Source: Baaleninema simplex PCC 7105
GTDB taxonomy: Bacteria; Cyanobacteriota; Cyanobacteriia; Cyanobacteriales; Geitlerinemataceae
DNA: 64,000 nt
Direction: 5' to 3'
NCBI RefSeq assembly: GCF_000332355.1
Contig: NZ_KB235958.1
Coordinates: 425,466-489,465 of the forward strand
The notes under the pieces are model-generated. The model made no database searches and was not told the origin of the DNA. It saw only the letters and a list, made by a program, of their open reading frames with translations. Shown here in pieces: positions 49,793 to 52,155 of this stretch; within the stretch, counting starts at the first letter, position 1, and each line of letters starts with the position of its first letter. A program made the position numbers and the translations under genes.

Positions 49793-49954
49793 AGACCGTT
49801 GGCAGGTCACAGGTTTTTCCTCGTCCCCTCGTTTCCCGGTCGTCTCCTCACTGCCCGATTTCAGCGATCGCCCTGACTTTAAGTTTCTTAAACTTACAGG
49901 AACTCGACGTCAAAGACTGAAAAGTTTCACGCAGACCTCTCGGGAGCGTGGAAG

Positions 49955-50007
49955 CCCCGTGTCTTTAGACCGGGGAGGAAACGCGACACGGGGACTTTAG
50001 TCCCCGT
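49955..50007. repeat. two right-end hairpins of the IscB element
   Basis: CCCCGTGTCTTTAGACCGGGG (49955-49975) and ACGGGGACT/AGTCCCCGT (49988-50007, perfect 9-bp stem, 2-nt loop) lie just after the IscB stop. Subterminal hairpins of this sort are the transposase binding sites of IS200/IS605-type elements. They mark the right end of the element near 49945. Confidence 0.7.
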
Positions 50008-50014
50008 AAGTCTT

Positions 50015-51286
50015 TCAGGCATAGGCGTAACCATCCTTTCTGTGAATTGGTTTGCAGTATTTGTGGCTGATGCCTGCCACTCTTCCAGACGCGGTGGTAA
50101 TATCAAAACTGCCAGAAGCACGGCAGAGAACCCGTCCTACATAGGAGCCGATTTTCTTCCCGGTCATGACTGTGGCAGTGACGATATCGCCTGTCTGAAA
50201 GCCTTTATGAATTTGAACTCGGGAGCGGTGGCGAGTAGGAAACCCATATTTATCCGTCCCGCACATCTGTCGAGTACCATGTCCTTTGGCTGCAATTAGT
50301 AACGGCTTTGATGTGAGGATTTCGAGTGATTCGATTTTCCCGACACACGCTGCATCAAGCCAGTGAGCCTTGGGCAATTCCCATCGAGTCCGATTAAACT
50401 TGGTTTGTCCCCCCGTGCCTGTCGCCACAGGCAAGCCTGTCTGTTTCAGAGCAGTCAACAATGCCCATCGGGTTGAATTAACCGCTGCTGCATCTTTAAG
50501 CGGTGATTTTGCCTGCCTGAGAATACGACTCAGTAAATCAGGCTTGCCCGATAAAAAGTCTCGAATGTCCTGATTGCCTTTGGATTGATTGCATGAGTGG
50601 CAAGCTAGGGTCAGGTTGGAAACCCGGTCGGTTCCCCCTTTAGACTTGGGGTGAATATGCTCGACTTCAAGCGCTACATTTTTAGCTCCACAGTAAGCAC
50701 ATTTCTGATTCCATTTCTCTAATAAATATTCCCTGACTTCATAGCCTGGCAATTCCCCTTGCTGGTACTCAATGCCCGATATCTCAGGGTTCTGCATGAG
50801 TTGCAGGTCGAACCTTACTAGCTCTTGGGAAATGTGGGCAATTGGGGCAAGCCGGCGAAAGCGGTTAACCCATGTCATTGTGGTATCTATCCGATGCTGC
50901 AAGCTGGGAGCTAACCAACCATTGGGACGAGTTCGATTTAAGAACCGAGCCTGCCGATAGCGAGTCTTGCGGTTTCGTCTAGAACGTCGGAGTTGACGAC
51001 GAGACAGCAATGCATCCTTAATTTGTTGGCTCCGGTGCTGCAACTCGGCGCCAAAGATGATTCGATCCCCTTGCTTCAGGGCAATTCCAGTGACTTGAGA
51101 ACCTGGATCTAATTTGATTTCGATAGGTTCAGGATTAGCATCAACCTCCTTTTTTAAGATGAGGGTGAATGGGTAGCGTCGAAATACAGATGCTTTCCCC
51201 GCTTTGAGCAGTGACCGTGCTACCCCTGGCTTGCAGGGTGTAAGCGGCTTGCGGTTGGCATCTAAAACGAAAACATGGTTAGACAT
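50015..51286 (-). CDS. iscB: IscB RNA-guided endonuclease (OMEGA system)
   Basis: 423 residues from the ATG at 51286 (MSNHVFVLDANRKPLTPC). The order is that of IscB: PLMP domain at 1-50, RuvC-I with catalytic Asp in KLDPGSQVTGIAL, an Arg-rich bridge helix (SRRQLRRSRRNRKTRYRQA), RuvC-II Glu in HISQELVRFD, an HNH domain CAYCGAKNVALEVEHIHPKSKGGT ending CHSCN, and RuvC-III Asp in HWLDAACV. All catalytic residues are present, so it should be active. IscB is the ancestor-type relative of Cas9 carried by IS200/IS605-like elements and uses an omega RNA coded upstream. No TnpA transposase accompanies it, so movement depends on a transposase supplied in trans. Confidence 0.96.
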   Translation of the reverse strand: MSNHVFVLDANRKPLTPCKPGVARSLLKAGKASVFRRYPFTLILKKEVDANPEPIEIKLDPGSQVTGIALKQGDRIIFGAELQHRSQQIKDALLSRRQLRRSRRNRKTRYRQARFLNRTRPNGWLAPSLQHRIDTTMTWVNRFRRLAPIAHISQELVRFDLQLMQNPEISGIEYQQGELPGYEVREYLLEKWNQKCAYCGAKNVALEVEHIHPKSKGGTDRVSNLTLACHSCNQSKGNQDIRDFLSGKPDLLSRILRQAKSPLKDAAAVNSTRWALLTALKQTGLPVATGTGGQTKFNRTRWELPKAHWLDAACVGKIESLEILTSKPLLIAAKGHGTRQMCGTDKYGFPTRHRSRVQIHKGFQTGDIVTATVMTGKKIGSYVGRVLCRASGSFDITTASGRVAGISHKYCKPIHRKDGYAYA

Positions 51287-51540
51287 TGTTGCGTCTCTTC
51301 TGATTGCTCGTAACGTTGGCTTCGCCAATGTTCAGAGTCGGTACTCTCCAAATCGCACTGTCTTAACCCCTTAAAACTGTTTAACGATTCGGTTCTAGAG
51401 CCTAGAACTAGCACGCATTCCAGGGTAGGAACTTTAACTCTTGCTCGCTCACGTAGCCAGTTAAGGCGATAGCTGGTCAGCTACCTGAAGGGGAGGCACG
51501 AAGCCCCCGTGCTTCAGCCGGGGGTGCTGACAATGCTACA
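51287..51540 (-). ncRNA. predicted omega RNA of IscB
   Basis: IscB guide RNAs are coded just upstream on the same strand, and this gap has no gene but many stems: TTGGC/GCCAA (51316-51328), GTTCTAG/CTAGAAC (51392-51408, 3-nt loop), TAGCTGGTCAGCTA (51470-51483) and CCCCCG/CGGGGG (51504-51524). The last lies near the left end of the element. The guide would be read from the sequence outside the left end, about 51537-51560. Exact ends are not known. Confidence 0.65.
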
Positions 51541-52155
51541 ATACAACTGCTTTAGCGCGATGGCAGTGTTAAAGTTATGTGGGTGAAGTACCCGACGCTG
51601 ATGCTTCGCATACAGCACGGGCTTCCAGTTTCACAGGCCAGCGCCGCCACGCCCGCGAACCCAGTTTTGGTCTTCGTTCTCTCGGATGCAAGCTCCGAGA
51701 GCTGCGAAGACTGCGTCTTACCCAGCCTCCGAAGGTTTGGCTTGCCGCAAGCGACAGCCCTGACTCCCGTAACGCATCGCGTTACCCTGGCAGCAACCCG
51801 TCTTCCACAGGTCGATATTTGTTGCTTGTCTCAAGCACGGACTTACGGATACCGTGAACGTTGAAGGAAACAGCTTCCCCGAGCTGCCGATCTATCTGCG
51901 GCAAGAGTCCAAGCTCTACTTTGAAGTTAGCCTGTCTGTTCGATACGGTCGGGCGGTTCGTTGACCATCTCGACGCTTCGACTTCGCTCAGCGTTGAGTC
52001 CGAGCGGAGTCGAGGACTCGATTATACCTTGCCGCTCGGCTATCCCGGCCGCCGCCGACCGTTCGGCTGGGCTCACGGCCGAAGCCTTCATCTGCAGCGC
52101 GGGGCTTCCCGCCGAGGGAGCTAAAATAGCTACGATCGACGTTTTGAAACGAGCG
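51541..52155. other. unexplained GC-rich region between the IscB element and the response regulator
   Basis: A 288-bp open frame at 51577-51864 overlaps a second frame and has unusual, Pro/Ser/Arg-rich composition, so I do not call it a gene. Near 51873-51950 a frame reads EGNSFPELPIYLRQESKLYFEV, which looks more protein-like and could be the relic of a coding region. The stretch probably contains debris of an earlier insertion. The palindromic repeat copy at 51974-52017 lies in it. Confidence 0.4.
51974..52017 (-). repeat. 44-bp dispersed palindromic repeat, copy 2
   Basis: Exact reverse complement of 56-99. It lies 139 bp upstream of the response regulator start. Confidence 0.85.

What the first reader, a model, noticed from the sequence alone, without database searches (positions are those of the whole stretch)
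49945..51560. Intact IscB element with a strongly structured predicted omega RNA
PLMP, three RuvC segments, bridge helix and HNH are all present with catalytic residues. The 254-bp upstream gap has at least four stems and no gene, as expected for an omega RNA. The element has right-end hairpins and no tnpA. Read on the minus strand, the bases outside the left end (about 51537-51560) should be the guide.
Basis: partly seen in the sequence, partly recalled or inferred. Interest (0 to 1): 0.75.

Follow-up and report, generated by a model that had tools for sequence, protein, structure and literature searches.

The report
Mobile IscB nuclease with guide RNA
This is an apparently intact but ordinary IscB mobile element of a cyanobacterium: a small RNA-guided DNA-cutting enzyme (an ancestor-type relative of Cas9) with its own guide RNA, and comparison with empty sites in related genomes shows where its guide and its target motif lie.

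Summary
The finding is real and its interpretation holds, with corrections. On the minus strand, 51531-49931 is a 1601-bp IscB (ISC/IS200-IS605-type, HEARO) element in a cyanobacterium. It holds a 423-aa IscB (NCBIfam guided_IscB, E 1.3e-143) and a HEARO/omega RNA at 51531-51310 (Rfam RF02033, 140 bits against a cut-off of 83), whose structure is backed by covariation (25 of 43 pairs with two-sided changes). The left end is exact: 23 HEARO copies in the same genome start with the same bases after mostly unrelated flanks. The guide is therefore 51532-51547 (up to about 51555), not 51537-51560. The right end is followed by GTGA (49930-49927). Empty sites in relatives of two close copies read left flank-GTGA-right flank, so GTGA is the pre-existing target and presumed target-adjacent motif (TAM). 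The element itself starts with GTCA, one base different, which would spare the occupied site. The gene is under purifying selection (dN/dS about 0.13). No tnpA lies in the element; four Y1 transposases elsewhere could act in trans. All this fits published IscB/HEARO biology. Expression and cleavage are not shown; the window's own empty site was not found. New member of a known kind, low to moderate interest.

The parts
50015..51286 (-). iscB coding sequence, 423 aa, PLTP domain, RuvC-I/bridge helix/RuvC-II/HNH/RuvC-III, TAM-interacting C-terminus
   Evidence: dN/dS about 0.12-0.14 against nine close copies
51310..51531 (-). HEARO / omega RNA scaffold
   Evidence: Rfam RF02033, 140.3 bits, full model 1-211; covariation
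51532..51547 (-). predicted 16-nt guide GTTGTATTGTAGCATT, outside the left end (may run to about 51555)
   Evidence: left end fixed at 51531 by 23 own-genome copies with mostly unrelated flanks and by relatives; guide length from literature (PMC13180657, PMC9755519)
51528..51531 (-). first four bases of the element, GTCA, which take the place of the TAM beside the guide in the occupied site
   Evidence: 22 of 23 own-genome copies start GTCA; sequence
49931..50000 (-). right end with subterminal hairpins (CCTCCCCGGTCTAAAGACACGGGG...), last element base 49931
   Evidence: alignment of right ends of relatives
49927..49930 (-). GTGA target tetranucleotide / presumed TAM, belongs to the empty site
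   Evidence: empty sites L169, L198, L199 of copies L154 and L156 keep GTGA between the flanks
51581..52126 (-). separate repeat next to the left flank, probably the 3' end of a decayed TnpB element ending ...TACTTCAC
   Evidence: copies at C4:2396290 and C3:152403 and part at C1:241; pieces lie just 3' of TnpB genes L182 and L188

Best explanation
A 1601-bp IscB (ISC/HEARO) insertion sequence. A transcript that starts in the left flank would carry about 16 nt of host sequence (guide) followed by the omega RNA scaffold; IscB binds it and cuts DNA that matches the guide and is followed by GTGA. That sequence is the empty site left when the element excises, or carried by a sister chromosome, so cutting and repair would restore the element (homing/retention). 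The occupied site has GTCA instead of GTGA beside the guide and should be spared. Mobility would be supplied in trans by a Y1 (TnpA) transposase. Shown: protein, RNA, ends, GTGA in empty sites of close copies, purifying selection, copies at many sites. Inferred: transcription, cleavage, TAM strictness, self-sparing, trans mobilisation.
For: NF040563 guided_IscB E 1.3e-143, 478 bits against cut-off 175; RRXRR and HNH Pfam domains; RF02033 140 bits; 97.5% of 1155 cells paired, 201 two-sided changes against 58 in shuffles, covariation score 0.49 against 0.17 shuffled and at most 0.10 for slid structures; left end identical in 23 copies with mostly unrelated flanks; full-length relatives 83-85% identical from base 1 to the right end; empty sites: L169 for L154, L198 and L199 for L156, the latter restoring an open Uma2-like reading frame only if GTGA is kept; dN/dS 0.12-0.14; four Y1 transposase matches over the cut-off elsewhere in the genome. 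Literature: the IsrB nickase recognises an NTGA TAM (PMC9581776).
Against: No transcript or cleavage data. No empty site for this very insertion was found in 38 relatives searched with each flank. For copy L158 the relatives' sites have GTTC, GTTA or other bases in place of GTGA. No promoter-like site was seen upstream of the RNA. The transposases are elsewhere in the genome.
Confidence: 0.93

Rival explanations
1. An immobile, decayed IscB relic whose RNA and protein no longer work.
For: No tnpA in the element; a single full-length copy of this subfamily in the genome, its sibling (L039/L017) matching only in part and interrupted by an assembly gap.
Against: Intact frame and catalytic motifs, dN/dS about 0.13, intact RNA structure, both ends intact. 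Pairwise dN/dS does not exclude recent loss of function.
Confidence: 0.05
2. A domesticated IscB that serves the host, for instance acting on neighbouring kinase/response-regulator expression or on foreign DNA.
For: It sits between a histidine kinase and a response regulator gene that are 287 bp apart in relative G002. Purifying selection.
Against: It has standard mobile-element ends and GTGA, relatives of it lie at many unrelated sites and even in phages, and the guide has no other match in the genome.
Confidence: 0.02

Closest known systems
IscB / HEARO (OMEGA) elements of the ISC group, IS200/IS605-like
   Same: Protein family, domain order, 5' omega RNA of RF02033 type, guide from the left flank, terminal hairpins, 3' tetranucleotide target.
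   Different: Nothing of substance; PLTP in place of PLMP; 423 aa, smaller than the studied OgeuIscB chain of 496 aa.
IscB of Phormidium willei BDU 130791 (L093) and copies in family members G005/G007
   Same: 86% protein identity (L093); same ends and GTGA.
   Different: Other insertion sites; some G007 copies have a duplicated right or left end.
IsrB nickase (DtIsrB, PMC9581776)
   Same: PLMP domain, RuvC, bridge helix, omega RNA, NTGA TAM.
   Different: IsrB lacks the HNH domain that is present here.
Second IscB subfamily of the same genome (L010-L016 and others)
   Same: HEARO RNA, left end GTCA, 62-65% protein identity.
   Different: Right end followed by ATGG/CTGG-like bases, and a different residue pattern (RQRCR or RFRT against RQMCG) before YGFP.

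Membership tests
IscB protein family | Match above curated cut-off of NF040563 | tested here: met
   477.8 bits against 175
IscB protein family | N-terminal PLMP domain, split RuvC with bridge helix, HNH inserted before RuvC-III | tested here: met
   Domain order and residues by alignment; the eponymous tetrapeptide itself is PLTP
HEARO / omega RNA | Rfam RF02033 above gathering score directly upstream of the ORF | tested here: met
   140.3 bits against 83, ends 23 nt before the ATG
HEARO / omega RNA | Conserved structure supported by covariation | tested here: met
IscB element (ISC, IS200/IS605-like) | Defined ends, guide-flank at left end, target tetranucleotide at right end kept in the empty site | tested here: met
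   Ends; empty sites of close copies, not of this copy
IscB element (ISC, IS200/IS605-like) | Y1 transposase in the element or able to act in trans | tested here: inconclusive
   None in the element; four matches over cut-off elsewhere in the genome; trans action not testable
RNA-guided endonuclease (function) | Guide-dependent, TAM-dependent cleavage | not testable with these tools
   Needs biochemistry
Cas9 | Match above the curated Cas9 model cut-offs | tested here: not met
   Only HNH-region matches far below the Cas9 cut-offs; 423 aa
IsrB | No HNH domain | tested here: not met
   HNH present, PF01844 E 1.7e-13

The most novel reading that the evidence does not exclude
IscB elements of this clade tell the empty target from their own occupied locus by one base: GTGA in the target against GTCA at the element's first four bases. 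The genome also carries a second IscB type with a TGG-ending motif, read by an exchanged residue pattern in the TAM-interacting domain (RQMCG against RQRCR/RFRTL), so that two guide systems with different motifs coexist in one cell.
Probability: 0.4. Interest if true: 0.4.

Novelty: new member of a known kind. Interest (0 to 1): 0.27.

Why it matters
The finding itself is ordinary. Its use is that the ends, the guide and the TAM can be read from natural empty sites, giving a compact 423-aa IscB with a predicted GTGA motif that can be tested directly. The link between the residue pattern near YGFP and the TGA or TGG ending offers a sequence rule for predicting IscB motifs; it rests on one or two evolutionary changes only.

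Tried and rejected
Empty site of this very insertion: flank searches in 38 relatives found the kinase and the response regulator but no alignable junction. A search for a second copy of the guide with NTGA in the genome found only the locus itself. A shared left flank of L050, L051 and L059 looked like mobilisation of the guide with the element, but L050 and L051 share 1000 bp, so a segmental duplication or assembly effect is likelier. Promoter scan: nothing above chance. The weak CRISPR-DR4 hit inside the ORF is below its cut-off and was rejected. A C-terminal search for a solved TAM-interacting domain found none. Altae-Tran 2021 is not held in the library.

Full report
What is there. On the minus strand of the window an open frame of 423 codons (51286-50015) encodes an IscB: NCBIfam NF040563 'RNA-guided endonuclease IscB' with 478 bits against a cut-off of 175, Pfam RRXRR and HNH, and alignments with solved IscBs across RuvC-I, bridge helix, RuvC-II, HNH and RuvC-III (motif positions). 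The N-terminal motif is PLTP rather than PLMP. Upstream, Rfam RF02033 (HEARO, the omega RNA family) matches its full model at 51531-51310 with 140 bits against a cut-off of 83, and is the only gathering-level match in the 64-kb window.

The RNA structure is real. The single-sequence fold is only modestly better than shuffles (z -2.5, one of 200 shuffles as good), so that alone would be weak. On 27 related RNAs, 25 of 43 pairs show two-sided changes; 97.5% of cells pair, against 80.8% in shuffles; two-sided changes number 201 against 58; and sliding the partners by 1-3 columns destroys the signal. The structure was derived from the same alignment, which favours it, but the margin is large.

The ends. 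The same genome holds 23 HEARO RNAs over the cut-off. Turned to one orientation, they start with GTCA (22 of 23; the other GTTA) directly after flanks that are unrelated except for one shared flank in L050, L051 and L059. This sets the left end at 51531. Copies in two species of the same family (G005, G007) are 83-85% identical to the window element from base 1 to the right end. Most of their right ends stop at ...GGTTTACGTGA before unrelated sequence.

The target. For copy L154 in G005, the corresponding empty site in G007 (L169) reads left flank, GTGA, right flank without any other change at the junction. For copy L156 in G007, the empty sites in G005 (L198) and G010 (L199) again keep GTGA, and the interrupted Uma2-like frame (name from my own knowledge of the motif) is open only if GTGA is retained. 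For a third copy, L158, relatives have GTTC, GTTA or other bases there, which fits drift but does not add proof. So GTGA belongs to the target, the element ends at 49931, and a guide made of the bases left of 51531 would match the empty site with GTGA directly 3' of it. This agrees with the NTGA motif measured for an IsrB (PMC9581776). The optimal guide of OgeuIscB is 16 nt (PMC13180657) and that of another HEARO nuclease 24 nt (PMC9755519), so the guide is 51532-51547, perhaps to 51555.

Self-sparing. In the occupied site the guide sequence is followed by GTCA. The pattern guide+NTGA with three mismatches allowed finds only this place in the genome, where it differs at exactly that base. In IsrB the third motif base, G, is read by an arginine (PMC9581776). 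That GTCA protects the element is therefore a reasonable inference, not a result.

Function is maintained. dN/dS between the window gene and nine close copies (seven in G005/G007, plus L093 and L094) is 0.12-0.14. Pairwise values average over both lineages, so a very recent loss of function would not show.

Context. The element lies between a kinase gene (ending 49792) and a response-regulator gene (starting 52156). The gap is 2363 bp here and 287 bp in G002. Part of the difference is a second repeat, 51581-52126, probably the 3' end of a decayed TnpB element. No tnpA is in the element. The genome has four Y1 transposase matches over the cut-off, 117 TnpB C-terminal domain matches and 23 HEARO RNAs.

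Comparison with the known. Protein, RNA, ends, guide side and target motif are those of IscB/HEARO elements. [quoted passage not shown]) is new. Statements about homing and retention rest on published work on TnpB/IscB from my own knowledge. I file this as a new member of a known kind.

A lead. Over 34 proteins, the bases at the right end (TGA or TGG) go with a residue pattern before YGFP: RQMCG or RRMCG with TGA in 21 of 21; RQRCR, RQMCR or RFRTL with TGG in 13 of 13. On the tree this needs only one or two changes, labels were assigned by eye, and several loci (L101, L102, L104, L105, L115) had unclear ends. It recalls the Q326R change that let IsrB use TTGG/ATGG (PMC9581776). This is a hypothesis to test.

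Noticed in passing
L014, L015, L016, L020, L023, L024 (own genome); same repeat in window about 51970-52020: Several IscB frames of the same genome carry in-frame insertions of small dispersed repeats coding LNASAPLSVESERSRG, ASTSLSVESERSRG or SLGARSLAPCDGAGSHR, for instance just before LNHRVETT and inside the HNH zinc ribbon after KCA.
   Followed up: partly
whole genome G000: 117 TnpB C-terminal domain matches and 23 HEARO RNAs but only four Y1 transposases over the cut-off: a very large stock of guide-RNA nucleases relying on few transposases.
   Followed up: no
window 51532-51580: The 49 bases between the IscB left end and the TnpB-like 3' end (TACTTCAC) would hold the guide regions of both, both read on the minus strand.
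   Followed up: partly
L145/L158, L146/L159, L156, L147/L160: G007 copies with a tandem duplicated right end (69-bp period), one with a duplicated left end, and a mini-element of about 55 bp in which left-end and right-end hairpins are fused.
   Followed up: partly
L138 and L140: IscB copies 80-81% identical to the window protein on two IMG/VR contigs beside thymidylate kinase, DNA methyltransferase and QueD genes, i.e. probably carried by phages.
   Followed up: partly
own-genome subfamily L010-L013, L023-L027: Right ends finish ...CATTTTAGATGG before variable flanks, pointing to a different target motif from the window element.
   Followed up: partly
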